From positions 28,213-92,212 of IMG/VR virus record IMGVR_UViG_3300042330_000433: a DNA stretch of 64,000 bases. One strand, given 5' to 3'. Made by a program: the position numbers and the translations under genes. The notes beneath the pieces were generated by a model. It was not told the origin of the DNA. It searched no databases and saw only the letters and a program-made list of their open reading frames with translations. This DNA comes from a virus. Of this stretch, positions 14,318 to 56,351 are shown one piece after another; position 1 is the stretch's first letter; every line of letters starts with the position of its first letter.

Positions 14318-14349
14318 TTTGGTTATATCAAATTAATTTCGTATATTTG
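14318..14349 (+). promoter_or_regulatory. Bacteroidota-type promoter for the RNA polymerase gene
   Basis: TTTG at 14318-14321, a 20-base spacer and TATATTTG at 14342-14349. The start codon is at 14365, giving a leader of only about 9 bases. The -33 element is part of a 6-bp palindrome (AATTTG...CAAATT), which could bind a regulator or form a weak hairpin. This suggests the polymerase gene can be transcribed by the host enzyme. Confidence 0.65.
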
Positions 14350-14364
14350 TATAAATTATAAAAT

Positions 14365-28626: not shown

Positions 28627-29363
28627 TATTCTAATGACATTATTAATTCTTTGTATTTTTCACATTTTTCTTCAAACTTAATTCTATCATCAATAACTTT
28701 AAGTACATTATCAAATTTACCTTTAGTTTCAGTTTGAACTAAATTCCACATTTGTTGTGCAATTTCTCTAATTTCTAATTGAGCATGTTCACTATTTCTT
28801 AATTTAATAAAATTAGCAAAACTTCTCATATTAAAAGTTACATCAGCTTGAATTTGTGAATTATATGTTTTAAAAAATCTAGCACTTTCTTTAGCTCTTT
28901 TACGACCTAATACTGGTGTAATTTGTTCTAAAGAGGCATGATATAATTTATTACCTAATTCATTATATCTTTCTAAAAGTTGTTTCCAAGTTTCATAACC
29001 TGAAGTAAATTTTTTAGTAAACTTATTAAATTTAGAATCATCAAATTCAATTCCAATCCAATCTTCAGGTAAATAAAATTTATCTTCTTTTAATTCTTTA
29101 TATCTAGCTGATTCACCATTGATATTAGCCATTCTATGTTTTAATAAATGAATATGACTAGCTATTTCAGTATCAACTAAAAAGTGTACTGAAACTTTCT
29201 CGAATGGTGTTTCGTGATGATTAGACCAAAGCATTTCTAATAAATTAGGAATTCTTTCTCTTTTAGCATCTGTAATATCTCTTGATGTACTAGTCCAAGC
29301 AGATTGTGCTACAACTTCATCACTTCCATAGAATCCTAATAATTCTACTTTATTGTTATTCAT
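28626..29363 (-). CDS. thyX: Flavin-dependent thymidylate synthase ThyX
   Basis: A 245-residue protein with the ThyX signature: KHRMANINGES at residues 75-85, i.e. RHRX7S with the first Arg replaced by Lys, followed by ARY. It makes dTMP from dUMP using methylene-tetrahydrofolate, NADPH and FAD, in the cytoplasm. Length is usual for the family. Other expected pieces are the HHxTPFE-like segment (NHHETPFEKVS, residues 48-58) and the C-terminal KTYNSQIQADVTFNMRSFANFIKLR region with dUMP-binding arginines. It overlaps the upstream diphosphohydrolase gene by 8 bases and belongs with the phage's dNTP-supply genes (nrdAB, MazG-like). Confidence 0.92.
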   Translation of the reverse strand: MNNNKVELLGFYGSDEVVAQSAWTSTSRDITDAKRERIPNLLEMLWSNHHETPFEKVSVHFLVDTEIASHIHLLKHRMANINGESARYKELKEDKFYLPEDWIGIEFDDSKFNKFTKKFTSGYETWKQLLERYNELGNKLYHASLEQITPVLGRKRAKESARFFKTYNSQIQADVTFNMRSFANFIKLRNSEHAQLEIREIAQQMWNLVQTETKGKFDNVLKVIDDRIKFEEKCEKYKELIMSLE

Positions 29364-29679
29364 TCTTTATATTTTTATCAACATATCTATCATCCATATC
29401 TTTTTTAAAAAGATACATATAAGATAAAAACATTGCATTACACAATATATGACCTACATGTGAAAGTTTACTTTCAGGGTCATCATTTTCTCCTTCCATA
29501 AAAGCATTTAAATGTCTTTGTAAACTTTCTGTTACTTCAGAGTATTTAAGTCCTTTTTTCCAATTATTAGCTGAATATTTATTAGCACCAAACATTAATA
29601 CTTTAACCATTGGTTCTAATGATTTCCAACTAACTAAACTCCATTTTATTTTTCCTTCATTATATCTCTCTGCATTCAT
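29356..29679 (-). CDS. dATP/dGTP diphosphohydrolase-like protein
   Basis: A 107-residue protein with RYNEGKIKWSL (residues 5-15), MVKVLMFGANKYSANNWKKGL and ESLQRHLNAFMEGE, then DPESKLSHVGHILCNAMFL. This pattern is that of the phage dATP/dGTP diphosphohydrolase family (all-alpha NTP pyrophosphatase-like), with the acidic and His residues expected to bind metal. Such enzymes remove particular purine dNTPs, changing the dNTP pool. It is followed by thyX with an 8-base overlap and preceded by a terminator hairpin, so it may start a transcript. Confidence 0.75.
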   Translation of the reverse strand: MNAERYNEGKIKWSLVSWKSLEPMVKVLMFGANKYSANNWKKGLKYSEVTESLQRHLNAFMEGENDDPESKLSHVGHILCNAMFLSYMYLFKKDMDDRYVDKNIKNE

Positions 29680-37429: not shown

Positions 37430-37885
37430 TTATAAAACTCTTATAAAAACTCCTGGTTTTTCTTTAGAATAACTACTATATTCACCATCAATTTCCATTG
37501 GAAATGGTAAAAATATTGTAGTATCATCATCTTCAATAATGTCGTGAGCAGTAAGTAAATCCGCAATAAGCTGGTTAGCATTATTAAAATCGTATCTATG
37601 CTTACTGCCACGTACAAAATGAAAACCAATTTTATAAGGTTTTACTGTTAAATGTTTTTCAAAAAATTCTCTAGTTTTTTCAAATTCATTTTCTTTAGTT
37701 ACATAACATTTTACTATTTTTCTACTAGCAGAATAAGATTGTATTCCTAATGCTCGTATATATTTAGTAACTGCTTTTGAACTGAAAATACCTTTTGAAG
37801 TTTTAACCTTTGAATTTTTTAGACTTGGGACATTCCCATTTATGAATAAATATTCATTACCATTGAATTCTAAATTCTCTACCAT
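37430..37885 (-). CDS. RusA-like Holliday-junction resolvase
   Basis: A 151-residue protein with the RusA pattern: GNVPSLKNSK near the N-terminus (conserved 'P.sKn') and YDFNNANQLIADLLTAHDIIEDDDTTI (split: DFNNANQLIADLL at about 104-116, then DIIEDDD), matching the D-x-DN...D-DD acidic residues that bind metal. RusA enzymes cut four-way DNA junctions. The domain is longer than lambdoid RusA (about 120). It would resolve branched replication intermediates before packaging. The start overlaps the uracil-DNA glycosylase homologue by 29 bases. Confidence 0.72.
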   Translation of the reverse strand: MVENLEFNGNEYLFINGNVPSLKNSKVKTSKGIFSSKAVTKYIRALGIQSYSASRKIVKCYVTKENEFEKTREFFEKHLTVKPYKIGFHFVRGSKHRYDFNNANQLIADLLTAHDIIEDDDTTIFLPFPMEIDGEYSSYSKEKPGVFIRVL

Positions 37886-38531
37886 TTTGTTCTGTAATTT
37901 CTTGGTTAATATCTTCTAACGCGTCGACATTAAGAGTTTGAAATTGCAAAACATTATGTTTTCTTTGATTAATTTTACTAGTGTAGTGCGTACCATTATC
38001 ACCTATAAAAGCAAAAATTACACCTGAATGAATTAACATATCATTTAAATATGTAATAAAATAATTAATAAATTTTGACCATTCTTCTACATCTGGTTTT
38101 TTAGTAGTACCTGTTAAAGCAGTATTTAATAAAAATACACCTTGATCTGTCCAATGTGATAAAGTATAATCTTTATCTACCATAAGACCTCCGCAAATAT
38201 GATTTTCTATACCATTAAATAAATTAAATAATGTAGGATCAAAATCATTGATTAAACTATCTTTATTAGCAAAAGCTAATCCATTACTTCTATGATTAAA
38301 AGTAGGAGTACAATTAATTATTACTACAGTAATATTATTTAATCTAACATCTTTGAACGATTTGAAAATGTCTTTTTTTGAAGGATAATAGTCTTTTTTA
38401 TTTTTATAATTTTCATGTAATGATAACATTAAGTTATACATATCTTCAGTTTGTAAAAATTTATTTAATAAATCAGACCATTGACCCATCAATAAAGAAT
38501 AATCAATTTCTAGTTTATAGTCAATCATCAT
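37857..38531 (-). CDS. Uracil-DNA glycosylase homologue, catalytic residues lost
   Basis: A 224-residue family 1 UNG homologue. The scaffold is clear: LSHWTDQGVFLLNTALT (UNG: WA-QGVLLLN) and the FAFIGDNG / RKHNVLQ stretch before the second motif. But the water-activating motif GQDPYH reads NCTPTF (Asp to Thr, in VIINCTPTFNH) and HPSPLS reads FQTLNV (His to Phe). It should therefore not remove uracil. It may bind DNA or block host UNG; poxviral D4, a UNG used as a polymerase processivity factor, shows such reuse is possible. Two start codons (ATGATG) are adjacent; it overlaps a 34-residue gene upstream. Confidence 0.75.
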   Translation of the reverse strand: MMIDYKLEIDYSLLMGQWSDLLNKFLQTEDMYNLMLSLHENYKNKKDYYPSKKDIFKSFKDVRLNNITVVIINCTPTFNHRSNGLAFANKDSLINDFDPTLFNLFNGIENHICGGLMVDKDYTLSHWTDQGVFLLNTALTGTTKKPDVEEWSKFINYFITYLNDMLIHSGVIFAFIGDNGTHYTSKINQRKHNVLQFQTLNVDALEDINQEITEQNGREFRIQW

Positions 38532-38631: not shown

Positions 38632-40473
38632 TTATTCAAGTTGTTGTTTTAATCTTGCCAAAGATGCATCTTGACTAGTTTTAAGTTCATTAACAAATAG
38701 TTTTTCTAATTCAGCATCTGAATCAAATTTTGATTCAGCTTTTTGTTTTAAAGCTGAATTTTTTGATGGTTGTTTAGAACTTGAAAGTCTTACGCCACTA
38801 AATTCATCATCCGTTACTAATTTTGAAGTAGCCATGTTAAATGAAGAATTAGTGGTGAAACTTTTAGGAACACTATAGCGCATTGGTTCTCTAGTGTTTC
38901 TATTTGGTCTATAACTATCATTAAAATCATTAAAATTAGAAAGACTTTTGGTATTATCTTTAGTATCAATATGATTCCATCTAATAACTTTATTACAATG
39001 TATTAAATCTTCATCACCTTCAATTTTACCTCTAGAATTTATTTCTTCTAATCTTCTTACTCGAGTATTGATATAAGAAATATGATAGTTTAATAAATTA
39101 TTTTTTTCACTTTTTTTTAATATTTTTTCATTTCTTAGATATTCATCAATAAAATTTCTAAGATTATCTAATTTAGTAACATTAGAAAAATCTTTTAAAA
39201 TTAATTCAGTATTGTTTACTGTATAATCTAAAATATAAATATTAATTAATAAAAAATTAATAATTTTATCAATATCATAAGTTGGTGTATGAATTCTAAA
39301 TTCAATAGTTTGCTTATTACCAAAAATAATAGGTACTAAATTATTAGCATAATATCTAGTGTTAATATTCCATTTTTGATTACCACTTGGATCTCTTGGA
39401 TGTTCTTTAACATTATCTAAATTATTATTATATGCTGCAAATGGTGTACCTTCTGATAAATAACTAAATATTACATCAAAATTTTTATTAACTTGCTCTT
39501 TGTTTTTAATATCAATTGAAGCATCTAATAAACTATTAACTTTATTAATAGGAAATGGTTTTGAATAATTTTTTCTTTTTACACCAAAATTATATTTCTT
39601 GTATAAAGGAAACATTGAAAACATTTCATCTTGAAAAAATGAAGCTACTTTCCAAAAAGCTAATAGAAATTCAGGTGTTCTAGGTATATTACCAACATGA
39701 TAGTGTAAAGCACAAGATGTATTATACTCTGTTTTACTTTCTAAATGATAAGCAGAATCAATTAATGCCTGTAATCCTATTTCTCCAGATAAAGGTATTG
39801 TAACATACTCTAAACCACTAATAGAACCATCTCTTAAAGGTATTAAAGGTAATACTTTTAAAATATTTTCATTTAGTATACCTTTTACAGTTTCAAATTC
39901 TAAACCAAAAGTATATTTTTTTAGTAAAGGAGCGTAAGTTTTTACACTTTTGGTAATATTAGGTTTATAGTTGGCATTAAATTTTTTAGTAAATTTATCA
40001 GTAATTCCTCTAGAATCATAAGGGAAAGATTCTTTATATTCTTTACTAACATCTTTAATTAAATTAAATAATTTTGCCTTTTTAATAGATATATGATAAA
40101 ATATACCAGTAGATTTTTCTTCTCTATAATCTAATGAGATTATAGATTTATTTAAACATACATGATAGTTATTATCTTTATCAATTAATATTATATTATA
40201 TAATGGGTTGCTTTCAAACAACCCAGTAATTAATTTGTTTTCTTCAAATCTAACTATTCCTTCAATTAAATTTGCATTAGGAAGTGTATATTTACCAACG
40301 GTGTGATTAAATACTAAATTTTCAGGTCTAATATATCTTTTGTTTATTAAATATATTTGTCCAGAATTTTCTTTACTTACATCACCAATTGAATAATATT
40401 GACCATCCACTAATCGACATGTACTTTCAGGAACTTCAAATCCTTCAATATTTTTTACAATTTTATCTTCCAT
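38632..40473 (-). CDS. Amidoligase (COOH-NH2 ligase) domain protein
   Basis: A 613-residue protein with an amidoligase domain of the glutamine-synthetase-like COOH-NH2 ligase group: FGLEFET at about 189-195 (Mg/ATP-binding Glu residues), RDGSISGLEYVT near 214-225, then CALHYHV at about 254-260. This family joins a carboxylate to an amine using ATP. About 180 N-terminal and 250 C-terminal residues have no recognisable motif; the last third is Ser/Asn/Lys-rich. The stop is the downstream end of an operon of ligases and amidotransferases, and the gene starts 1 base after the class II amidotransferase gene. I infer synthesis or modification of a peptide or amino-acid-decorated product. Confidence 0.75.
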   Translation of the reverse strand: MEDKIVKNIEGFEVPESTCRLVDGQYYSIGDVSKENSGQIYLINKRYIRPENLVFNHTVGKYTLPNANLIEGIVRFEENKLITGLFESNPLYNIILIDKDNNYHVCLNKSIISLDYREEKSTGIFYHISIKKAKLFNLIKDVSKEYKESFPYDSRGITDKFTKKFNANYKPNITKSVKTYAPLLKKYTFGLEFETVKGILNENILKVLPLIPLRDGSISGLEYVTIPLSGEIGLQALIDSAYHLESKTEYNTSCALHYHVGNIPRTPEFLLAFWKVASFFQDEMFSMFPLYKKYNFGVKRKNYSKPFPINKVNSLLDASIDIKNKEQVNKNFDVIFSYLSEGTPFAAYNNNLDNVKEHPRDPSGNQKWNINTRYYANNLVPIIFGNKQTIEFRIHTPTYDIDKIINFLLINIYILDYTVNNTELILKDFSNVTKLDNLRNFIDEYLRNEKILKKSEKNNLLNYHISYINTRVRRLEEINSRGKIEGDEDLIHCNKVIRWNHIDTKDNTKSLSNFNDFNDSYRPNRNTREPMRYSVPKSFTTNSSFNMATSKLVTDDEFSGVRLSSSKQPSKNSALKQKAESKFDSDAELEKLFVNELKTSQDASLARLKQQLE

Positions 40474-40474
40474 T

Positions 40475-42511
40475 TTATTTATTATTTCCTATTTTATCAA
40501 TAATTAAAGAATCTAAATTCATTAGATAATCATTGTTAACTTCCATAACATCTGTTACTACATCAGAATTAGCAGAATGTTTTGCTAAACTATTATTTGC
40601 ATTTTGAACTGTTATATAAACATTCATCATTTCAGATTCAAGAGTATCCTTTATTTCAGAATCATATTCAATTTCTTCTTCAATTTTAGGATCTTCATCA
40701 ATTTGAGAATTTCTAGCAATATGTTCTATATCAGAAAATATATCTTCATGATCAATAAAATGTTCTGTTTTAATTTGATTAACATCAAATATATCACCTA
40801 ACTTTTTTAATTCTGTATTATGATATATTTTAAAAGGCACATCTAATTTAATTTCTGAGCTTTCTCCTAAAATAATAGGTGTAGAATTTTCTAATAAATC
40901 AATAGAACTCTCACATATTTCAATATTAATTAAGTTTCCTTTTTCAATATTATATATTTTACCACTTTGAAGAAATGAATGTTTCTTTGTATATGGCAAT
41001 CTATTATATGTAATTTCTTGATTATGATCAGGTTTTCTTTTTTTATTAAGATCTATAATTGGATGTTTTGACATTTCAGATAAATCTAAGAATGTATATT
41101 TATCTTTAAATTTATTAGTAACTGCTTCATAATCCATTGAAGTTTCTAACATTACACCTTTATGGAAATAAATTAAAGGTGGTTCAACTTGTTTCTTAAA
41201 TGTAAAAGGTTTAACAATATTACCTGATTTAAAATCTGGTGTTTCAGTACCATTTAAGAATCTACCTTCATCCATATCAAAAAATCTATCTAATAATTCA
41301 TAACTTGCAGCCATAGCTTTGTTAGAATCATCTGCTAAATGAAAGAAACCATAACCAAATATAAAAGTATAAACACCATTAATTAAATGACCATTTCTTC
41401 TATAACGTAAGTTTCTAAAATTAATACCTGATTTAAAATATTTATCATCTGTTTCATCATAAATATTTGTAATAATAGAATTATCTAATAACTTGTAATT
41501 TAATTTCGATTGTTTAGGGCTCCTTTTTTTAGTCGTATCTATGTCCAAGGTACAATTGGCCGTGGCCGTATGTATCTTCCTTGTCATAGGAGCCATCGTA
41601 AAATTTTTGTTATGACTCGTAATAAATGATTTTTTCTGAGCAGCTTTACTTCTATCTACTTTATAAGTAACAGCAGAATCAATATCTCCATTTTTAATTT
41701 TATAAACAATATTATGTTTAAATTCAAAAATATTTTTATTTAATTTACCACCAATTGCAATTAAAGGTTCCTCTAAAGAAGATATATATAAAGAATTTTT
41801 ACTTTCTTTATAATAATATAAAGGTCTTTCTTCAAATTTATCAGGATTAGTATCACTAGTTTCTTTTCTTGATGCACCATGAAACGCATAAACTGTATCA
41901 GGTTCAGTTAAATCTTGAAAAACTAAAGCTGCTCCACCAATATAAGAATCTAAAACTTTAATATCTTTAGAATTATAAATACATTCTAATAAAATTTCTG
42001 AATCATTTTTAGAACGAATCCATTTACCTCTTGTACCATTTTCATTCATTTCCCATAAGTCAGCTATAACACCATATTCCTTAGCTAAATCACCATGGTT
42101 TGTTAATGTACCATTATGACAGCCTATAAATGAATAACCTTCTTTTAGTTCACCAAATCCAAATGGATGTGCATTATATTCATTAGCTGCTCCAACGCTA
42201 GTTCTTCTTGTATGACCAAATACAACAGGTACTTCTTTTGGTTTCAAATATTCTTTTTCTATTAAAAAATCATAATAATTTTTATTAGTGGTTAATCCAT
42301 AATAAATCTCACCATCAGTTGTAACACCACATGAATCTCCACCTCTAGAATTATTGTAAAGTCCTAAAATGTCAAATTTTGCTTTATTGAAAGATTTTGG
42401 ATTACTTCCAGCCCATGCAAAAATACCACAACCTAATGTATTATGTTTTGGTTTAAATATTATTAAACTAAGAATTTGGAATAATAAAAGTATTAATATT
42501 ATATTTATCAT
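40475..42511 (-). CDS. Class II glutamine amidotransferase with hydrophobic propeptide
   Basis: A 678-residue protein. After a 27-residue N-terminal segment, which is a strong membrane helix (IILILLLFQILSLIIF), Cys28 starts the Ntn-hydrolase domain: CGIFAWAG, GHTRRTSVGAA with NAHPF about 100-118, and CHNGTLTNHGDL about 130. These match the glutaminase domain of class II amidotransferases, which frees ammonia from glutamine. There is no start codon next to the Cys, so the leader must be cut off or the gene starts upstream as read. A ~400-residue C-terminal part has no synthetase I recognise; ammonia would pass to one of the neighbouring ligases. A GC-rich nested inverted repeat lies within the gene at 41518-41594. 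Confidence 0.78.
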   Translation of the reverse strand: MINIILILLLFQILSLIIFKPKHNTLGCGIFAWAGSNPKSFNKAKFDILGLYNNSRGGDSCGVTTDGEIYYGLTTNKNYYDFLIEKEYLKPKEVPVVFGHTRRTSVGAANEYNAHPFGFGELKEGYSFIGCHNGTLTNHGDLAKEYGVIADLWEMNENGTRGKWIRSKNDSEILLECIYNSKDIKVLDSYIGGAALVFQDLTEPDTVYAFHGASRKETSDTNPDKFEERPLYYYKESKNSLYISSLEEPLIAIGGKLNKNIFEFKHNIVYKIKNGDIDSAVTYKVDRSKAAQKKSFITSHNKNFTMAPMTRKIHTATANCTLDIDTTKKRSPKQSKLNYKLLDNSIITNIYDETDDKYFKSGINFRNLRYRRNGHLINGVYTFIFGYGFFHLADDSNKAMAASYELLDRFFDMDEGRFLNGTETPDFKSGNIVKPFTFKKQVEPPLIYFHKGVMLETSMDYEAVTNKFKDKYTFLDLSEMSKHPIIDLNKKRKPDHNQEITYNRLPYTKKHSFLQSGKIYNIEKGNLINIEICESSIDLLENSTPIILGESSEIKLDVPFKIYHNTELKKLGDIFDVNQIKTEHFIDHEDIFSDIEHIARNSQIDEDPKIEEEIEYDSEIKDTLESEMMNVYITVQNANNSLAKHSANSDVVTDVMEVNNDYLMNLDSLIIDKIGNNK
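41518..41594. repeat. GC-rich nested inverted repeat inside the amidotransferase gene
   Basis: Outer arms GGCTCCT (41518-41524) and AGGAGCC (41588-41594). Inside, on the - strand, are further pairings TATG/CATA, CAAGG/CCTTG, TACA/TGTA and a central GGCC-AC-GGCC. It encodes the in-frame linker MTRKIHTATANCTLDIDTT with codons (ACG, GCC, AGG, GAC) rarely used around it. It is much richer in G+C than the flanks and looks inserted. Confidence 0.6.
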
Positions 42512-42518
42512 TTGTTTT

Positions 42519-43340
42519 TTATATTGTTATTTTTTCTTTTTTTTCAGTAATATTAAGTACTGTTAATAATTCTTTTGCTGATTCTAAATCATTAGAATCA
42601 ATTGCAGCTCTAACTTGTTCTGAATATTTATTAATTAATTCATCACATTCATTATCTAAAACAAAGTTTACAGCTTTTAATGTTTGATTAAAAACCCAAC
42701 TCATTGTTTCTGGAGTGTGAATCCAAAAATTAGATAATGCTCTACATTCAACTCCAAATTCTTTAAATCTAAAACTTCCTGCTTTACCATATAACTCTCT
42801 TCGACGCGTATCATTGTCTTTAAAAAGAGCTGGTAATACTACAAACATATCAAATGCTTTTACTATTTTTTCAGTTTGTTCTTCATTAGGATTTGGATAA
42901 CCAATTGCAACATGTCCTCCAGCACATCTTAAATTTGTATTAGAATCTGGTGTTGGGTTGTTATCACCTAAATATACATTATAATCAGGTTCACAACCAA
43001 ATGTTGAAGCTTGTAAAGTTTGTAGATATTTTTCATTAACTTCATCACTAACTTTTGTACTAAAATTATAACCATTAGCTTGAGCTAATACTAATAAATA
43101 ATCTTGACAAACCTGATGATTTTCTATCCATTCTTCTTCTGTTGAACAAGGTGGAATATTATATTCAAACATAATACCATCTTCTTGAATGGCATGACCT
43201 TCTTCTGTAATAGGTCTAGGTGAATATTTACTTCCACCTTCAGTTAAACCTTCAGCTGATACAATTTCATTTTCATCGCAAATAAAAATTTCTGGATCTG
43301 CACCTAATGTTACGTTATATTTGTTTTCTACTTTTTTCAT
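42519..43340 (-). CDS. phiEco32-type COOH-NH2 ligase (amidoligase type 2)
   Basis: A 273-residue protein with LGADPEIFI (residues 12-20), EDGIMFEYN (about 52-60), CAGGHVAIGYP and FRFKEFGVECRALSNFW. This is the pattern of the second phage amidoligase family, first defined in phiEco32-like phages. The Glu, Asp and His residues should hold ATP-Mg in a glutamine-synthetase-like fold. It ligates a carboxylate with an amine; substrates unknown. It shares its start region with the stop of a class I amidotransferase (one-base overlap), and the class II amidotransferase follows 7 bases later. Confidence 0.8.
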   Translation of the reverse strand: MKKVENKYNVTLGADPEIFICDENEIVSAEGLTEGGSKYSPRPITEEGHAIQEDGIMFEYNIPPCSTEEEWIENHQVCQDYLLVLAQANGYNFSTKVSDEVNEKYLQTLQASTFGCEPDYNVYLGDNNPTPDSNTNLRCAGGHVAIGYPNPNEEQTEKIVKAFDMFVVLPALFKDNDTRRRELYGKAGSFRFKEFGVECRALSNFWIHTPETMSWVFNQTLKAVNFVLDNECDELINKYSEQVRAAIDSNDLESAKELLTVLNITEKKEKITI

Positions 43341-44029
43341 TATACTTTTAAATAATAATTAATTAATACATGTATCATTTGTTTAGTTTGTTGAGGACAA
43401 TTTGGACTTTCAGGGTGACCTTGAATACATAATGAATTTGTTTTAGAATAAAAAACAACTTCTGGCTCTACAAAATTTTTTGGTAAATCAATATTTACAT
43501 CATTACCATTTAAGTATTTATTACTTAAAAAATATTTAGAGTATCCAAGAATAATAAAATTTTCTTCATTCATTCCAAAAGGATACATCATTTGATGATG
43601 TGTAGAAGTTATTTTATAAATTGAATCAGTATAAGGTGTTGACATTTCAATTTCATGTAATCCACCCACTGCATGACCTTCTACATGTTGAATTAATTTA
43701 CCACCTGACCAAACTGTAAGTGCTTGAGCACCTCTACAAATTCCTAATTTAGGTGTATTTTTGAAACGATTAAATAAATATTCTTTTTCATATTTATCAC
43801 GTTCAATATTATATTTAGTTTTTGAACCAGTATTTTCATTATAATATTGAGGAGTAACATCTTCTCCTCCAATAAATAATACTAAATCAATTTTTTCTTT
43901 ACCTGTATAATTTGAGGATTTTACAACTGTTACATCATAAAATTCAGATAAAAAAGCAATATAATTATCATTATTTATTTTACCATTTACATATACTGTA
44001 ATTTTATTTTTAGTCATTCTGATCGTCAC
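43340..44029 (-). CDS. Class I glutamine amidotransferase / gamma-glutamyl hydrolase-like (1)
   Basis: A 229-residue class I GATase-type protein. Visible are FIGGEDVTPQYY, the nucleophile elbow GICRGAQAL (Cys about residue 98) and QGHPES (His/Glu of the triad) near 205. The GGxDVxPxxY plus GICRGxQ combination is typical of the PuuD/peptidase C26 branch, which cleaves gamma-glutamyl bonds. It could hydrolyse glutamine for a neighbouring ligase or trim a gamma-glutamyl intermediate. It overlaps a related gene by 20 bases at its start. Confidence 0.82.
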   Translation of the reverse strand: MTIRMTKNKITVYVNGKINNDNYIAFLSEFYDVTVVKSSNYTGKEKIDLVLFIGGEDVTPQYYNENTGSKTKYNIERDKYEKEYLFNRFKNTPKLGICRGAQALTVWSGGKLIQHVEGHAVGGLHEIEMSTPYTDSIYKITSTHHQMMYPFGMNEENFIILGYSKYFLSNKYLNGNDVNIDLPKNFVEPEVVFYSKTNSLCIQGHPESPNCPQQTKQMIHVLINYYLKV

Positions 44030-44735
44030 TTAAAAGTTCATTAATAATAATTTTTGCATATGCACAATTCATTTCTTCAGGATGATATTGTAAACCTGCT
44101 ATTTTTAATGTAGAATGTTTAAAACCTTCAATAATAATAGGTTCAGGTTCAGTATTAATAACTGCACCAGCTTTATTATAATAATTCCAACCTCTAACAT
44201 TATTTTCTTCAGAATAACAATTATCATATCTTTGAGAATAACAAATAACTTCCAATCCTTTTCCTAAAATATTAACAGATTGATGATGCATTGTATTAAT
44301 ATACCATCTATTGTTATTATTTTCAAATTGCATTTCTTGTTTAGTTTCTTCTCTTTTATCACCTTGATGATGACCAAGTATATGTTGATTTAATGTTCCA
44401 CCAAACCAAGTATTTAAACGTTGCATACCTCTACAAATACCAAAGATTGGTTTATTTGCTTTAATAAATTGAGGAATCAACATTTTATCTAAATATTCAT
44501 AATGTTGATTAGCACGAGTATCCATTACTCCTGGTACACTGTTATATGTTGAAACATCAACATCAGCACCACCTGGTAATACTAACATATCAATTTCATC
44601 AACAATTTTATCTAAATTGTCTGTAGTAGAAATTAATCTAACATAACCAAATTGACTAAAAAATTGCATATATGGAAATGTTTGACCAACTTTACCATTA
44701 TATGAATCAGCATATATACCTATTGTTTTTTTCAT
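44010..44735 (-). CDS. Class I glutamine amidotransferase / gamma-glutamyl hydrolase-like (2)
   Basis: A 241-residue paralogue of the next gene. Motifs: LVLPGGADVDVSTYNS, nucleophile FGICRGMQRLN (Cys about residue 108), HHQSVN, and LQYHPEEM (His-Glu of the triad) near 225. It belongs to the PuuD/C26-like group. Two copies side by side with different middle parts suggest two steps of one pathway, or two substrates, rather than redundancy. It follows the 140-residue unknown gene by 1 base. Confidence 0.82.
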   Translation of the reverse strand: MKKTIGIYADSYNGKVGQTFPYMQFFSQFGYVRLISTTDNLDKIVDEIDMLVLPGGADVDVSTYNSVPGVMDTRANQHYEYLDKMLIPQFIKANKPIFGICRGMQRLNTWFGGTLNQHILGHHQGDKREETKQEMQFENNNNRWYINTMHHQSVNILGKGLEVICYSQRYDNCYSEENNVRGWNYYNKAGAVINTEPEPIIIEGFKHSTLKIAGLQYHPEEMNCAYAKIIINELLSDDQND

Positions 44736-44736
44736 T

Positions 44737-45159
44737 TTATTTTTTTATTGTTTTTTCTTTTTTGTATATTTTTGTTAAATCTAATAACATTAATGTCATT
44801 GAAGAACCATTTGTAGAACTATACGGTTTACTAAATTTAATTACATCTTTATCATCTTTAAACATTTTTTTTACAGTATCTACATATTGTTTTTTAATAT
44901 CAACTAATATAACTTTATTAATTTTAGAAAGAATCATTTCTTTACTATTATGTTTAAAAGATGTTAATATTGATGCAAAATAATTAAATAAATAAATATC
45001 ACTATCTGTATTATTCAAATTAATAAAATTTTTTATATTTGTTGAAATTTTATGACCATTTGCGTAATTATCATACATACATTGATATTGAATACTACCA
45101 TTTGGATTTATTACTTCTTTAACACTTGTAATGTACATTCCATTTATTACATTTTCCAT
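44737..45159 (-). CDS. Unknown 140-residue protein in the ligase operon
   Basis: An alpha/beta protein (MENVINGMYITSVKEVINPN...). Its C-terminal part has a beta strand (KVILVDIK), an amphipathic helix (DTVKKMFKDD), then KPYSSTNGSSMTLMLLDL. The strand-helix-Asn-strand ending also appears in the 131-residue protein beside it and in the proteins at 50770-51456 and 51878-52480, suggesting a lineage-specific family. No catalytic residues are visible. Placement between ATP-grasp and amidotransferase genes suggests a carrier or accessory role, but this is inference. Confidence 0.55.
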   Translation of the reverse strand: MENVINGMYITSVKEVINPNGSIQYQCMYDNYANGHKISTNIKNFINLNNTDSDIYLFNYFASILTSFKHNSKEMILSKINKVILVDIKKQYVDTVKKMFKDDKDVIKFSKPYSSTNGSSMTLMLLDLTKIYKKEKTIKK

Positions 45160-45555
45160 CTACTTTCTTTTTAATAAAATTATATATTGATTAATACCTC
45201 TAACTTTTACAGTTTGTTCTACATACATAGTTTTATTTGAAACTTTTTTAAAACTTTCTTTAAATTTATTAAATCTTGATGTATTTCTAATTATAATTAA
45301 TTTAAGATAATTACCTGGTGTAATCAAATTAGTTGTATAGTTAGTTAATTCTTCAATTGTTAAAGTATCAATAAGTTTATTAATATTATTAATAGAACTT
45401 ATTTGACAATTACTTGTTGGTGAAGGATGAAGTACTACGTCAATTTTTAAGTTTTCTTTACCAATTTGTAATTTTTGAATATTACCATTATTTGAAAGAA
45501 TATTTAATTCACGAGCAGGTACTGATTTTTTATTTTCTAGCATTGTATTTTTCAA
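45160..45555 (-). CDS. Unknown 131-residue protein in the ligase operon
   Basis: It contains VVLHPSPTSNCQISSINNINKL in the middle (conserved-looking Asn-Cys) and ends with LKLIIIRNTSRFNKFKES...FKKVSN...YIILLKRK. A similar TNC ... strand-helix-strand pattern occurs in the 200-residue protein at 51878-52480. Stand-alone phage proteins with a '(N/S)C-G/x' motif and a final 'N-x-x-hydrophobic' strand are sometimes likened to acetyltransferases, but I cannot confirm this. The start overlaps the ATP-grasp gene by 26 bases. Confidence 0.5.
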   Translation of the reverse strand: MKNTMLENKKSVPARELNILSNNGNIQKLQIGKENLKIDVVLHPSPTSNCQISSINNINKLIDTLTIEELTNYTTNLITPGNYLKLIIIRNTSRFNKFKESFKKVSNKTMYVEQTVKVRGINQYIILLKRK

Positions 45556-46414
45556 TTAAAAGTTCTGGTAATTTTTCTTTGTATTTTTCTAATGTAACTG
45601 TACCCATACTTGGAGCAGAATTAATTTCTACAACAATAAATTCACAAGATTTTCTTTTTTTACCATCTCCATCAGTGTTGTTCTGCACTCTTAAATCACA
45701 TGCTCCAAAATCTAAACCACATGATTTTAATGCATTAACACAATGTTCTACAATTTCATTCCAATTTATAGGTTTATCAAAATTAGGATTTTCTTCAAGA
45801 ATCCAAACACAATTATCATCATGACGTTGCCATGAATTTGGATGGTCTTTAAATTCTTGTTTTAACATTTTTCTACAAGTGTAAAAACAACCATCTTTAG
45901 TAACATGTAATCTATATTCTTTATTGTAATTACAATACTTTTCTAAAATATAATGAGAAGGTGTTTTACCGTTCATGAAAGCATCATATTCAGCACGAGT
46001 TTTAAATAATGTATTACCTTTACCTCTACTACCATGATGTGATTTTGCAACAATAGGATATTCTACAGTTCTTAACCATTCTTCTACATTAGTATTATTA
46101 TTAGTAGTTTTAGCTACCCAACTTGCTGTTTTGACATTTAATTTTTCAAAACATTGTTTCATTAATAATTTAGATGAACTATTTTTAATTGCTTCAGGAG
46201 AATTTAATTCAATTCTTGTACCTGATGTTGACGCTGCATCATCTAATTCTGTTAATGAACCAAATCTAATTACACTTCTAAAAGGTAAAGATCTCAATTG
46301 TGTTCTAAAAGGGTTATGTGATGGATGTCTACTTCTAATCATTGGTTTAAATTTACCAACAAGTTTTTCTCCTATTTTTTTAATTGTATTTGCTTTTTTT
46401 ACTACAGTTCCCAT
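45530..46414 (-). CDS. ATP-grasp carboxylate-amine ligase
   Basis: A 294-residue protein with ATP-grasp features: YPIVAKSHHGSRGKGNTLF (ATP-binding lysine and glycine-rich loop, about residues 113-131), YILEKYC...KEYRLHV (about 150-165), and FGACDLRV followed by EFIVVEINSAPSMGT (Mg-binding Glu and Asn, about 265-279). It activates a carboxylate as an acylphosphate and joins it to an amine or other nucleophile, as in RimK-type peptide ligases. The basic N-terminal 50 residues are specific to this protein. It lies between the cyclotransferase-like gene and the small unknown genes in the operon. Confidence 0.82.
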   Translation of the reverse strand: MGTVVKKANTIKKIGEKLVGKFKPMIRSRHPSHNPFRTQLRSLPFRSVIRFGSLTELDDAASTSGTRIELNSPEAIKNSSSKLLMKQCFEKLNVKTASWVAKTTNNNTNVEEWLRTVEYPIVAKSHHGSRGKGNTLFKTRAEYDAFMNGKTPSHYILEKYCNYNKEYRLHVTKDGCFYTCRKMLKQEFKDHPNSWQRHDDNCVWILEENPNFDKPINWNEIVEHCVNALKSCGLDFGACDLRVQNNTDGDGKKRKSCEFIVVEINSAPSMGTVTLEKYKEKLPELLIEKYNARK

Positions 46415-46415
46415 A

Positions 46416-46835
46416 TTATCTATTGTTTTTTACTTCTTTGTATATTTGTTTGCGGTAATCTAACCAATCACCGCCTGAAACTTTTACTTTATTTGATACT
46501 TTTAATGAACTAAAAAATGTAGTTGCATTTCCATAAGGAGTATAAATTAAACTTTTTTCAAAAGCTTCTGTTTCTTGAGTTTCATCATTATGTTGACGAA
46601 TGTGTTCTAATTTTTTGTAGACTTCTTCTGATACATCATATACTTCCATTCTAATAGATGTATTACCATCTCTTATTAGTACAGGATATAATCCAAATAC
46701 ATACATATCATAAATTGGTTCTGTATCAAAACTACCTAAAAAAATTTGATTACCTACTATATGATGTGAAACACCACCTTTACGCAAGCTACCATATAAA
46801 GCTACTAAGTATCTTTTTTTTTCTTCTTCTTTCAT
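46416..46835 (-). CDS. Gamma-glutamylcyclotransferase-like protein 1, active-site Glu missing
   Basis: I start at the ATG at 46835, giving 139 residues and a 5-base gap to the primase stop. The fold signature YLVALYGSLRKGG is clear (YGSL-x-x-G substrate loop). However, where the family has D-x-L-E-G with the catalytic Glu, this protein reads LEHIRQ, so Glu appears to be Arg. It may bind a gamma-glutamyl group without cyclising it, or be inactive. Its paralogue at 53080-53475 keeps the catalytic Glu. Cyclotransferase-like proteins accompany phage amidoligase operons, in keeping with the neighbouring genes. Confidence 0.7.
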   Translation of the reverse strand: MKEEEKKRYLVALYGSLRKGGVSHHIVGNQIFLGSFDTEPIYDMYVFGLYPVLIRDGNTSIRMEVYDVSEEVYKKLEHIRQHNDETQETEAFEKSLIYTPYGNATTFFSSLKVSNKVKVSGGDWLDYRKQIYKEVKNNR

Positions 46836-46840
46836 TCTTT

Positions 46841-47881
46841 TTAAAAAGGTACGGCGTTGTTTATTAATTCTATTAAGCATTCTTTTGCTATTTTTTGACC
46901 ATGATTTTTTACTAAATCACTAAAGTCTTTAGATTTATATTCATCAGGTATTTCTAATTGCCATAAATTAAACTTACTTGTTAAATTATCACTAAATTGT
47001 CTACCCCAGTTAACTTCTTTATCAAAATCATTATCATAAAGTAAATATACTTTTTTAAATCTTGATTTTAATTCATTAATTATATTTTCTTTAGGTAAAG
47101 CAGATTCAGTTTGTAAACTTACTGCAGGAATACCTGTTACATTTACAATTGACATTACATCTTTTAAAGATTTTGTAACTATTAATTTATCACCAGTTGC
47201 AGGCATTTGCTCCCAACCTTGCCATACTGAATCATCATGGGTATTTAACCATTTATAATTACCATTGTTTGGTTGATATATTTTAAATGTTTCTTTACCA
47301 TCTTTTATTTCAGTATAAGAATAAGCTAATGTATCTGCTTTAATAATTTTTTTTTCAATTCCAGCATGTATATATGCAACAGGTCTAACTCTATATTTTT
47401 GCAATGTTTCATGAGTTATACCAAATTGACTCCAATATGCTAAATCTTGTAATGTCCAATCTCTAGATGTTTTAGCTAACGCTTTAGCATTTAATTGTTT
47501 TAAAATTTCTTCTCTTGTTGTTAAATAATTTGATGAATTAACATTTGTTTTAAATGTATTTTTTATAATGAATTCATTTTCTAACCCTGCATCTAAAGCA
47601 ATTTTACTTAATGCTTCAAACCAAGTTATTCCAAATTTAAGCATCACAAATTTAACACATTCTCCATGACCTAATACAAAATCATTAAAGCAAATTTCTC
47701 CAGATTCTCCTTTAAAAAATCCAAATGAATTTCTTTTATCTTCTCTTAATGGTGAAGATATATTACCTTTTGTACTAACATCTTCTGTCATATACATTCT
47801 GTATATTTCTAAATCAGTAATCTTTTCAAGTAATAATTCTTTTGTAATAGGTTTTAAATTTAAATTAATTAGTACATTCAT
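46841..47881 (-). CDS. DNA primase with Toprim domain (DnaG-like)
   Basis: A 346-residue protein. The N-terminal half contains ISSPLREDKRNSFGFFKG and CFNDFVLGHGECVKFVM, the DnaG-type primase core entrance, without an obvious Cys4 zinc ribbon. The Toprim part holds LIVTKSLKDVMSI (in the place of the conserved Glu loop) and LLYDNDFDKE (DxD) at about 270-280. It lays RNA primers for phage DNA replication. It is placed upstream of the ligase operon and downstream of a 44-residue gene, and belongs with helicase, SSB-like and polymerase genes to the right. Confidence 0.8.
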   Translation of the reverse strand: MNVLINLNLKPITKELLLEKITDLEIYRMYMTEDVSTKGNISSPLREDKRNSFGFFKGESGEICFNDFVLGHGECVKFVMLKFGITWFEALSKIALDAGLENEFIIKNTFKTNVNSSNYLTTREEILKQLNAKALAKTSRDWTLQDLAYWSQFGITHETLQKYRVRPVAYIHAGIEKKIIKADTLAYSYTEIKDGKETFKIYQPNNGNYKWLNTHDDSVWQGWEQMPATGDKLIVTKSLKDVMSIVNVTGIPAVSLQTESALPKENIINELKSRFKKVYLLYDNDFDKEVNWGRQFSDNLTSKFNLWQLEIPDEYKSKDFSDLVKNHGQKIAKECLIELINNAVPF

Positions 47882-52483: not shown

Positions 52484-53080
52484 TTAATTTAATTTTGTAG
52501 TCCAGTCATCTACTGGTTTGTTATCAATTTCATCTATAAATGCAGATAATCTACTAGATTCTCCGTGTGCATCTTTTTTATAAATAAAATAATCAGCTTG
52601 TTGTAAATAATTTAAATTATCTAAAGATTTAATATATAATTTAGCAGCTTTTAATATATCTTCTTTATTATAAGAAGGATTATCTTGCATCCATTTATAC
52701 ATTTTATCACTACAAGCTTTTTCTGAACCCATACTTCCAGGTTTTAAACCTTTCCATAATAGTCTAAATTCTTTAATAAAGTCATCGAGTTCTAGTTGTA
52801 TAGCTCTCGATGACTTCTTAATTTTAGTTTTATTTTTTATTGAACCTATACTATCAATAGTAACTAATTCAATTAATTGAATAGCTTTACCTCTTAAATG
52901 TAATTGTTTTTCATCATCTATTTTTATAAATTGTCTTTCTTGTAAAGATTTATAACATTTCTCATAAATAGAAGTATATTTTCCAATTCCATGTAAATAT
53001 AATAATGTTAAAAATTCTTCAATTGATAATTCATGCCCTTCTAAAAAATTAAAATCTAATATAAAAGCTTGATTTTGCAT
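52484..53080 (-). CDS. Putative replisome organiser / winged-helix protein
   Basis: A 198-residue protein. The first 85 residues (SIEEFLTLLYLHGIG...YKSLQERQFIKIDDEKQLHLRGKAIQL) look like a winged helix. The C-terminal 100 residues (FRLLWKGLKPGSMGSEKACSDKMYKWM...YLQQADYFIYKKD) resemble the second domain of phage replication-initiation proteins that load helicase. A perfect 11-bp inverted repeat lies in the middle of the gene, between the two domains, where lambda-type initiators keep their origin. It overlaps the upstream cyclotransferase gene by one base. Initiator function is an inference. Confidence 0.45.
   Translation of the reverse strand: MQNQAFILDFNFLEGHELSIEEFLTLLYLHGIGKYTSIYEKCYKSLQERQFIKIDDEKQLHLRGKAIQLIELVTIDSIGSIKNKTKIKKSSRAIQLELDDFIKEFRLLWKGLKPGSMGSEKACSDKMYKWMQDNPSYNKEDILKAAKLYIKSLDNLNYLQQADYFIYKKDAHGESSRLSAFIDEIDNKPVDDWTTKLN
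52779..52816. repeat. Perfect 11-bp inverted repeat, possible origin site
   Basis: AAGTCATCGAG (52779-52789) and CTCGATGACTT (52806-52816), 16 bases apart, with a further CTA/TAG pairing inside. It is richer in G+C than its surroundings and lies within the possible replication initiator gene. Confidence 0.55.
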
Positions 53081-53475
53081 TACACTTCTTCTACAATTTT
53101 TTTAGTACGATTCATCCAATCACCAGATTCAATCAAACTTGATTCATGAGGTTGACGAACATAAGTATAAACACCTGCTTTACCCCAAGGAGTTTCAATT
53201 TGAATTTTATCATAGAAATAAGGTGTTTCTCCAGGAGTGTATCCTTCTAAACCATCTACTCTACGAGCTTCTTCTGCATTTACTGCATAAACTTCCATAA
53301 CTACAGCTGTTTTACCACCTTCTTTCAGTCCAGGAAAGCCACCTAATGAATACAAATTATAAATTGGATCTGTTGTATAAGTTCCTTTATAATCTGCATT
53401 TTCAAGCAATCTATGGTTACCATTACCTTTACGTAATGTGCCATACACGGCTATTAAAATATTTCTTTTTTCCAT
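53080..53475 (-). CDS. Gamma-glutamylcyclotransferase-like protein 2
   Basis: A 131-residue protein with the family signature AVYGTLRKGNGNH (substrate loop YGTL-x-x-G), FPGL, and RVDGLEGYTPG carrying the catalytic Glu. It is 6.6 kb from its degenerate paralogue at 46416-46835 (46836), which has lost that Glu. The enzymes turn gamma-glutamyl amines or peptides into free amine plus 5-oxoproline. It may remove a gamma-glutamyl protecting group made by the ligase operon. It starts 3 bases after the phosphoesterase gene. Confidence 0.82.
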   Translation of the reverse strand: MEKRNILIAVYGTLRKGNGNHRLLENADYKGTYTTDPIYNLYSLGGFPGLKEGGKTAVVMEVYAVNAEEARRVDGLEGYTPGETPYFYDKIQIETPWGKAGVYTYVRQPHESSLIESGDWMNRTKKIVEEV

Positions 53476-55802: not shown

Positions 55803-56351
55803 TTATTTTATTAAGTTAATAATTTTATTACATTCATTAATATATTCTTTATAATATTTGAAAGATGTTTTATTTTTTCTAGTCCCTTTTAATTTTCTAG
55901 ATAAATTGGAAGATGAAATATTGAAATTTTCTGCTACTTTTTTTACAGAAGGATAAATAATCATTGTGTTTAAATCAATAACTTCTTTAGACATACTTGA
56001 TAATTTTTTAATATTTCTTTTTTGTGAAATTTTCATTTTTTCAATAGTTTCTTCAGATAGTTTACCAGATTTATCATTTGTTTCTGTTAATCTACAATTT
56101 AATCCGTTTTTTCCTGTAGAATTATATAAATCTTGATAATATCTTTCTCTATTATTTAATTCAGATTCTTCACATTCTTCTAATATTTGAAACATATGAT
56201 TATTAAAACCATATTTTAAAAAAGAATGATACAATTTTATTTGTGTTTTACAACTTTTTAAAGAATAAATATAATATCTTTTTTCAATATTAATACTTTG
56301 TCCAATATAAATTTTATTTGAAGGAGAAGTTATTTTATAAATACCTATCAT
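55803..56351 (-). CDS. GIY-YIG homing endonuclease (copy 2), next to DNA polymerase
   Basis: A 182-residue endonuclease: MIGIYKITSPSNKIYIGQS (GIY...YIG, residues 3-17), RYYIYSLKSCK, and ERYYQDLYN, then a basic linker and a C-terminal NUMOD/HTH-like part (VIDLNTMIIYPSVKKVAENFN). Its ATG overlaps the polymerase stop (TAATG). Homing endonucleases often sit beside DNA polymerase genes, whose conserved sequence is a safe target. It is closely similar to the broken copy 3 at 61042-61678. Confidence 0.9.
   Translation of the reverse strand: MIGIYKITSPSNKIYIGQSINIEKRYYIYSLKSCKTQIKLYHSFLKYGFNNHMFQILEECEESELNNRERYYQDLYNSTGKNGLNCRLTETNDKSGKLSEETIEKMKISQKRNIKKLSSMSKEVIDLNTMIIYPSVKKVAENFNISSSNLSRKLKGTRKNKTSFKYYKEYINECNKIINLIK

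What the first reader, a model, noticed from the sequence alone, without database searches (positions are those of the whole stretch)
38632..46835. Amidoligase operon with three amidotransferases and an ATP-grasp ligase inside a crAss-like phage replication region
Over 8 kb the - strand encodes a cyclotransferase-like protein, an ATP-grasp ligase, two small unknown proteins, two class I amidotransferases, a phiEco32-type amidoligase, a class II amidotransferase and a second amidoligase, all with overlaps or gaps of a few bases. Seen: motifs FGLEFET/RDGSI/CALHYHV, LGADPEIF, GICRGAQ, GICRGMQ, CGIFAWAG/HNG and the ATP-grasp loops. Known: such sets (amidoligase plus class II amidotransferase plus ATP-grasp plus cyclotransferase) were described by comparative genomics in phiEco32-like phages and predicted to make or modify peptides. 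Inference: this phage makes an unusual peptide or gamma-glutamyl conjugate, perhaps to change cell wall, DNA bases or a host target. Two amidotransferases of class I plus the extra small genes are beyond the described set.
Basis: partly seen in the sequence, partly recalled or inferred. Interest (0 to 1): 0.85.

Follow-up and report, generated by a model that had tools for sequence, protein, structure and literature searches.

The report
Crass-like phage amide-bond ligase gene cassette
A crAss-like phage carries a nine-gene assembly line that should make and trim unusual amide (peptide-like) bonds; the core of this line is already known from many unrelated phages, but this version adds a second, unrelated glutamine-handling enzyme and a glutaminase that is born with a membrane-spanning tail in front of its catalytic residue.

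Summary
Nine tightly packed minus-strand genes (38632-46880) encode a GGACT cyclotransferase, a RimK-like ATP-grasp ligase, two small unknowns, two class I GATase-fold proteins, a phiEco32-type COOH-NH2 ligase, a class II glutaminase (GAT-II) and an Amidoligase_2; the enzymes keep their active-site residues. The phage is crAss-like, nearest to Cellulophaga phage phi14:2. The core is a known phage cassette: in 38 loci with enough flank, both amidoligases and GAT-II were in all 38 and the ATP-grasp in 37, always co-directional. It has already been proposed to modify peptidoglycan. One class I gene beside the COOH-NH2 ligase is usual in many cassettes; the second is an old, separate lineage, not a tandem copy. 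Both are Peptidase_C26 (PuuD/SpuA/Lin1909-like), so 'three amidotransferases' may be an overcall. New here: GAT-II has an in-frame hydrophobic N-terminal segment directly before its catalytic Cys, gained or lost at least six times in the crAss/cyanophage clade, suggesting a membrane-born proenzyme. Best explanation: multi-step amide-bond synthesis and trimming, most likely on cell-wall precursors; the target is unproven. New variant of a known kind.

The parts
46416..46880 (-). GGACT/AIG2-like gamma-glutamyl(amine) cyclotransferase (alternative start 46835)
   Evidence: PF06094 1.3e-9; YGSLR motif and the Glu of IRMEVYDV (E79, invariant in the alignment) present
45530..46414 (-). ATP-grasp ligase, RimK / alpha-L-glutamate ligase-like
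   Evidence: PF02222 4.1e-7, phrog_2599 3e-36; nearest solved: 7qys/7qyr alpha-L-glutamate ligase, cyanophycin synthase, RimK, Ddl; invariant K82, E166, R168, K182, D240, E263, N265
45160..45555 (-). small unknown protein 1 (paralogue of unknown 2; keeps the SPTxNCQ motif)
   Evidence: no significant Pfam family; same family as unknown 2 and the Lbo-JY46 pair
44737..45159 (-). small unknown protein 2 (keeps the STNGSxM motif)
   Evidence: no significant Pfam/PHROG family; model of the L009 homologue has only weak GNAT-like similarity
44010..44735 (-). class I GATase-fold / Peptidase_C26, lineage A (second, accessory copy)
   Evidence: PF07722 9.5e-27; Cys-His-Glu triad GICRGMQ...QYHPE; tree: separate deep clade with Lbo-JY46, L013 and L020 copies
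43340..44029 (-). class I GATase-fold / Peptidase_C26, lineage B (usual neighbour of the COOH-NH2 ligase)
   Evidence: PF07722 9.9e-17, phrog_7218 1e-38; triad GICRGAQ...GHPE
42519..43340 (-). phiEco32-type COOH-NH2 ligase
   Evidence: PF14395 1.2e-6, phrog_3815 1.3e-70; invariant DxE, FGCEPDYN, GGH, YGKxG, E198/R200
40475..42511 (-). class II glutamine amidotransferase (Ntn glutaminase 29-284, C-terminal domain about 360-545, C-terminal helices)
   Evidence: PF13522 3.9e-8; invariant C28, R56, H132-N133-G134, D170; model pLDDT 76.6, PDB matches to GlmS/PurF glutaminase domain
42431..42511 (-). in-frame 27-codon hydrophobic N-terminal segment ending directly before the catalytic Cys (Cys codon 42428-42430)
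   Evidence: sequence; Kyte-Doolittle mean 2.84 over 19 residues; helix 2-18 in the model; at least 6 gains/losses on the tree
38632..40473 (-). Amidoligase_2 with a 188-aa N-terminal domain
   Evidence: phrog_2443 1.5e-29, PF12224 8e-4; invariant G190/E192/E194, D215/S217, H257/H259, Y374, N378, E391-F392-R393; N-terminal length
53080..53475 (-). second GGACT gene, 6 kb from the cassette
   Evidence: PF06094 6.6e-18

Best explanation
The operon encodes a phage amide-bond assembly line. Three ATP-dependent ligases (COOH-NH2 ligase, Amidoligase_2, RimK-like ATP-grasp) each activate a carboxylate and join it to an amine; the class II glutaminase hydrolyses glutamine and supplies ammonia to one of them; the PuuD/SpuA-like class I proteins and the GGACT protein trim or recycle gamma-glutamyl products. 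It is probably made with the replication genes, before lysis. Most likely target: peptide stems or precursors of the cell wall, changed to disturb wall synthesis, prepare lysis or block superinfection. In this lineage the glutaminase is made with a membrane-spanning leader that must be removed to free its catalytic N-terminal Cys. Shown by sequence: families, active-site residues, operon, co-occurrence, hydrophobic segment. Inferred: ammonia transfer, trimming role, leader cleavage, timing in this phage, and the wall target.
For: Families; active-site conservation; core co-directional in 38/38, 38/38, 38/38 and 37/38 loci despite different gene orders; GAT-II has no recognisable acceptor domain, since PDB matches fall on the glutaminase only, so its ammonia should go elsewhere; class I proteins nearest Lin1909/SpuA-like/PuuD; ATP-grasp nearest amino-acid ligases and Ddl; cassette lies between primase and UDG-like genes in the window, phi14:2 and cr108_1; PaP3 ORF32-48, which hold its cassette, peak at 10-30 min (PMC4707531); SU10 ATP-grasp, GAT and YtfP proteins detected by mass spectrometry (PMC4281155); every named host seen is a diderm bacterium; published proposal of a peptidoglycan modification module (PMC11945000) and of wall modification against superinfection (PMC10580990); membrane leader on GAT-II fits work at the inner membrane.
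Against: No assay of any cassette enzyme was found. No wall-specific gene (Mur, transpeptidase) is part of the cassette. The membrane leader exists only in some crAss-like members, so membrane attachment is not needed in general; and if the leader is cleaved, the mature enzyme is free. Class I proteins are absent from phi14:2, L025 and L031 records, so they are accessory. A diderm-only host range may reflect database bias.
Confidence: 0.45

Rival explanations
1. Nitrogen or polyamine metabolism: the ligases and C26/GGACT enzymes make and break gamma-glutamyl amines (Puu-pathway-like), redirecting glutamine nitrogen or polyamines to phage production.
For: Class I proteins match PuuD/SpuA-like structures; GGACT acts on gamma-glutamyl amines (family knowledge); a related cassette in phage ZRK32 (L056) was proposed to aid nitrogen metabolism (PMC10945688).
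Against: Needs neither two different amidoligases plus a RimK-like ligase nor a GAT-II; class I genes are not universal; the ZRK32 claim rests on growth effects, not enzymology.
Confidence: 0.2
2. Protein tagging: the RimK-like ligase and amidoligases add amino acids to a host or phage protein, with the small paralogous proteins as substrates or transferases.
For: ATP-grasp resembles RimK; pairs of unknown proteins accompany several cassettes; the small-protein fold is weakly GNAT-like.
Against: Unknown pairs of different lineages are not related by profile and are missing in many cassettes; their C termini show no common motif.
Confidence: 0.15
3. DNA base modification: amino-acid or peptide groups are attached to phage DNA bases.
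For: Position in the replication block beside primase.
Against: PF00303 (the family that includes base hydroxymethylases) and PF00709 (adenylosuccinate synthetase/PurZ family) not found in the 92-kb record; the thymidylate synthase is Thy1/ThyX; no transferase acting on DNA in the cassette. The record may be incomplete.
Confidence: 0.06
4. Secreted or intracellular small peptide (signal, siderophore or inhibitor) made for competition between phages or against the host.
For: Linked ligases of these classes make such products elsewhere (statement in PMC4431377).
Against: No exporter or other tailoring enzyme in the cassette.
Confidence: 0.12

Closest known systems
phi14:2 cassette (Cellulophaga phage, Crassvirales, g037-g041)
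   Same: GGACT, ATP-grasp, COOH-NH2 ligase, GAT-II, amidoligase in the same order between primase and UDG; GAT-II with a hydrophobic N-terminal segment
   Different: no Peptidase_C26 gene anywhere in the 100-kb record; no small unknown pair
cr108_1 cassette (uncultured crAss-like phage)
   Same: ATP-grasp, one class I GATase, COOH-NH2 ligase, GAT-II, Amidoligase_2-like, same order
   Different: one class I gene, GAT-II starts MCG, two larger unknown genes unrelated by profile, no GGACT found
LUZ24-like cassette (PaP3 ORF42-48, UFV-P2, U17), called a putative peptidoglycan modification module
   Same: both amidoligases, GAT-II, ATP-grasp, GGACT
   Different: different gene order, extra phrog_4877 protein, no class I GATase detected, GAT-II starts MCG
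phiEco32-like cassette (SE131, 7-11, SU10)
   Same: core four genes; SU10 products detected by mass spectrometry
   Different: order, phrog_4877, two unknowns, GGACT outside the core block
Leptolyngbya phage Lbo-JY46 cassette
   Same: core four genes, GGACT, class I GATases, pair of the same small unknown family
   Different: order; GAT-II starts MCG; PRPP synthetase inside the region

Membership tests
phiEco32-type amidoligase cassette | COOH-NH2 ligase type 2 (PF14395) | tested here: met
   28.4 bits against a cut-off of 25; phrog_3815 1.3e-70
phiEco32-type amidoligase cassette | Amidoligase_2 (PF12224) | tested here: met
   PF12224 sub-threshold (19.8 vs 22) but phrog_2443 amidoligase 1.5e-29; profile-profile match between crAss and other phage forms 99%
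phiEco32-type amidoligase cassette | class II glutamine amidotransferase | tested here: met
   PF13522 3.9e-8; active-site residues invariant
phiEco32-type amidoligase cassette | ATP-grasp ligase, co-directional | tested here: met
phiEco32-type amidoligase cassette | GGCT/AIG2-like cyclotransferase | tested here: met
   PF06094 1.3e-9
peptidoglycan modification system | changes muropeptides or lipid II | not testable with these tools
   only proposed in the literature
active Ntn class II glutaminase | catalytic Cys at the mature N terminus | tested here: inconclusive
   Cys28 lies behind an in-frame 27-aa segment; no start codon directly precedes it; cleavage not testable
PuuD/SpuA-type gamma-glutamyl-amine hydrolase | Peptidase_C26 fold with Cys-His-Glu triad | tested here: met
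PuuD/SpuA-type gamma-glutamyl-amine hydrolase | hydrolysis of a gamma-glutamyl amine | not testable with these tools
   needs an enzyme assay
DNA hypermodification system | ThyA-family base hydroxymethylase or PurZ | tested here: not met
   PF00303 and PF00709 absent in the record
Crassvirales | structural and replication proteins closest to crAss-like phages | tested here: met

The most novel reading that the evidence does not exclude
The phage builds a not yet described amidated or gamma-glutamyl product at the inner membrane, with its class II glutaminase made as a membrane-anchored proenzyme whose leader is cut off to expose the catalytic Cys. The on/off presence of this leader in crAss-like phages would make it a switchable localisation or activation device for an Ntn glutaminase.
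Probability: 0.25. Interest if true: 0.65.

Novelty: new variant of a known kind. Interest (0 to 1): 0.42.

Why it matters
The cassette recurs in hundreds of sequenced phages of diderm hosts, yet no assay of its product was found here. Its conserved four-gene core says it does one job. The crAss version offers handles the others lack: a version without class I GATases in a phage with a cultured host (phi14:2 on Cellulophaga), a version with two class I lineages, and a leader on the glutaminase that points to the membrane. Finding the product would explain a common unknown phage pathway and possibly a new way of altering the host envelope.

Tried and rejected
Recent tandem duplication of the two class I genes: rejected, they fall in separate deep clades (97/93 support). 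Small unknowns equal to the paired unknowns of PaP3, SE131 or cr108_1: no profile support (best probability about 1%), so the resemblance is only positional. The crAss Amidoligase_2 N-terminal domain (188 aa in the window, 156-206 in relatives) as a fused phrog_4877 (about 190 aa, directly upstream of the shorter amidoligase elsewhere): sizes and positions fit but hhalign gives 0.2%; left open. Catalytic acceptor domain in GAT-II: none found. Gene fusions between cassette members: none. The GAT-II leader as a lipoprotein signal: rejected from the sequence, since the residues before Cys (TLG, TLN, VLF) do not fit a lipobox and basic residues follow the hydrophobic stretch. Z-genome or ThyA-type base modification: families absent. 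Alignment-based search for more small-protein relatives failed for lack of conservation; a single-protein search found only known loci. Iyer et al. 2009 is not held; its content is cited through later papers. Group I introns in interrupted relatives: no Rfam match at gathering threshold.

Full report
What is there. The window is bases 28213-92212 of a 92,212-base virus record. Between the primase gene (46841-47881) and a UDG-family gene (37857-38531) lie nine minus-strand ORFs with gaps of -40 to +7 nt. In transcription order they are GGACT cyclotransferase, RimK-like ATP-grasp ligase, two small unknown proteins, two Peptidase_C26/class I GATase-fold proteins, COOH-NH2 ligase, class II glutamine amidotransferase (GAT-II) and Amidoligase_2. 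The Amidoligase_2 match is weak in Pfam (8e-4, below cut-off) but clear in PHROGs (1.5e-29). The phage is crAss-like: a 1362-aa structural protein is 44% identical over its full length to Cellulophaga phage phi14:2, with crAss001-type phages next.

It is a working set by sequence. In alignments with relatives the key residues are invariant: COOH-NH2 ligase DxE, FGCEPDYN, GGH, YGKxG; Amidoligase_2 GxExE, DxS, HxH, EFR; ATP-grasp K82, E166, R168, K182, D240, E263, N265; GAT-II Cys, Arg, HNG, DS; class I Cys-His-Glu in both copies. No cassette gene in the window is broken.

It is a known kind. tblastn found the COOH-NH2 ligase in 311 phage records, led by Pseudomonas, Escherichia, Vibrio and Aeromonas phages. 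The window's Amidoligase_2 is close only to phi14:2, cr108_1 and Leptolyngbya phage Lbo-JY46. Profiles built here and run over the fetched loci show that, in 38 loci with at least 6 kb on each side, the COOH-NH2 ligase, GAT-II and Amidoligase_2 occur together in all 38, the ATP-grasp in 37, and every cassette gene is on one strand (the set includes some near-identical records, so 38 is not 38 independent cases, and the loci were chosen by the presence of one of the amidoligases). Gene order differs between crAss-like phages (GGACT, ATP-grasp, class I, COOH-NH2 ligase, GAT-II, Amidoligase_2) and LUZ24/OM43-type phages (class I where present, COOH-NH2 ligase, phrog_4877, Amidoligase_2, GAT-II, ATP-grasp, then GGACT where present), so the set has been kept through rearrangement. 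Published papers call the LUZ24-like form a putative peptidoglycan modification module (PMC11945000) and report a suggested role in wall modification against superinfection for phiEco32 (PMC10580990, citing Iyer et al. 2009, which is not held).

What is different here. First, the class I genes. The copy next to the COOH-NH2 ligase (43340-44029) belongs to the lineage found alone in cr108_1 and many other cassettes. The other (44010-44735) belongs to a separate deep clade with copies in Lbo-JY46, L013 and L020. It was acquired from, or kept since, an old split; it is not a fresh duplicate. Class I genes are missing altogether from the records of phi14:2, L025 and L031, so they are accessory. 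Their closest solved relatives are Lin1909, SpuA-like entries and PuuD (that 7d4r/7d50/7d53 are SpuA is from memory), which suggests gamma-glutamyl hydrolysis at least as much as ammonia supply.

Second, the GAT-II start. The catalytic Cys must be the first residue of a mature Ntn glutaminase (general knowledge). In most relatives the gene starts Met-Cys-Gly. In the window, L007, L010, L011, L016, L025 and phi14:2 an in-frame stretch of 27-31 residues lies between the start of the ORF and that Cys, and no start codon directly precedes the Cys. In the window it reads MINIILILLLFQILSLIIFKPKHNTLG. It is strongly hydrophobic (mean 2.84 over 19 residues), then basic, and modelled as a helix. On the GAT-II tree the stretch changes state at least six times, all inside the crAss/cyanophage clade. 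The stretches keep frame, have no stops and are all hydrophobic, so they are almost surely translated. By the positive-inside rule the enzyme should face the cytoplasm (inference). Activity would need removal of the leader (inference).

Third, the small proteins. Unknown 1 and unknown 2 are distant paralogues in one family, also found as single genes or pairs in L007-L010 and L018 and as an adjacent pair beside the Lbo-JY46 cassette. The L009 homologue gives a moderate model (pLDDT 73.8) with weak GNAT-like matches (best SpeG 4jjx, E 1.7e-3, TM 0.47), which is not enough to assign a function.

How it most likely works. Three carboxylate-amine ligases imply up to three different amide bonds. 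The GAT-II has no recognisable acceptor domain (PDB matches only in the glutaminase part), so its ammonia should pass to a partner ligase. The ATP-grasp protein resembles alpha-L-glutamate ligases, cyanophycin synthase, RimK and D-Ala-D-Ala ligase. C26 and GGACT enzymes cut gamma-glutamyl bonds in other systems (family knowledge), so trimming or recycling is likely. Related phages give timing and expression: PaP3 ORF32-48, which include its cassette, peak at 10-30 min after infection (PMC4707531), and SU10 ATP-grasp, GAT and YtfP proteins were detected by mass spectrometry (PMC4281155). The wall is the likeliest target because of the ligase types, the published proposal, diderm hosts throughout the listed records and the membrane leader. 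None of these is proof. I give about 0.45 to the full statement with the wall as target, and would put about 0.8 on the weaker claim that the operon makes and trims amide bonds on something other than DNA.

Rivals. A nitrogen or polyamine role has support from the PuuD-like proteins and from the ZRK32 report (PMC10945688). Protein tagging is possible because of RimK similarity. DNA modification is weak: the searched families are absent and nothing in the cassette acts on DNA. A small diffusible peptide is possible but no exporter is present.

Limits. Most relatives are metagenome records. Amidoligase substrates cannot be read from sequence. The host of this phage is unknown. Two structure predictions were allowed; the amidoligase N-terminal domain and phrog_4877 were not modelled.

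Noticed in passing
L010:7645-9336, L018:4871-6130, L067:4175-7333, L008:12760-15479: In relatives, cassette genes are split by insertions at or near active-site motifs (class I GICRG|MQ in L010; COOH-NH2 ligase GG|HVAIGY in L018; Amidoligase_2 in L008 with an HNH-like ORF at 13928-14641; COOH-NH2 ligase in L067), as expected of introns with homing endonucleases; no Rfam intron match for L008, L010, L018.
   Followed up: partly
window 53080-53475: A second GGACT gene with a better Pfam score (6.6e-18) than the cassette copy and a fuller LEGY..YDK motif; several related records also hold two.
   Followed up: partly
window 29356-29679: dATP/dGTP diphosphohydrolase N-terminal domain (PF18909 9.6e-32), a type I recall from purine base replacement systems, but no PurZ-family gene in the record.
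   Followed up: partly
window 38632-40473; L004:6782-8535: crAss-type Amidoligase_2 has an N-terminal domain of 188 aa (156-206 in relatives) where other phages have a separate phrog_4877 gene of about 190 aa directly upstream; possible fission/fusion without detectable sequence similarity.
   Followed up: partly
L003, L005, L006: Nicotinate/nicotinamide phosphoribosyltransferase and/or PRPP synthetase genes lie within a few kb of the cassette in Lbo-JY46, SE131 and Slicky01.
   Followed up: no
window 55803-56351: GIY-YIG-type homing endonuclease directly after the DNA polymerase gene (phrog_314 2.9e-22).
   Followed up: no
window 6444-27462 (+ strand): Very large proteins (552, 661, 1408, 1871 aa) without any PHROGs match at 1e-3; the 2493-aa ORF at 14365-21846 was not searched.
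   Followed up: no
L057:3403-9416: The cassette including a class I GATase also occurs in a 349-kb record labelled Vibrio phage V07 (Schizotequatrovirus, UNVERIFIED), possibly a chimeric assembly.
   Followed up: no
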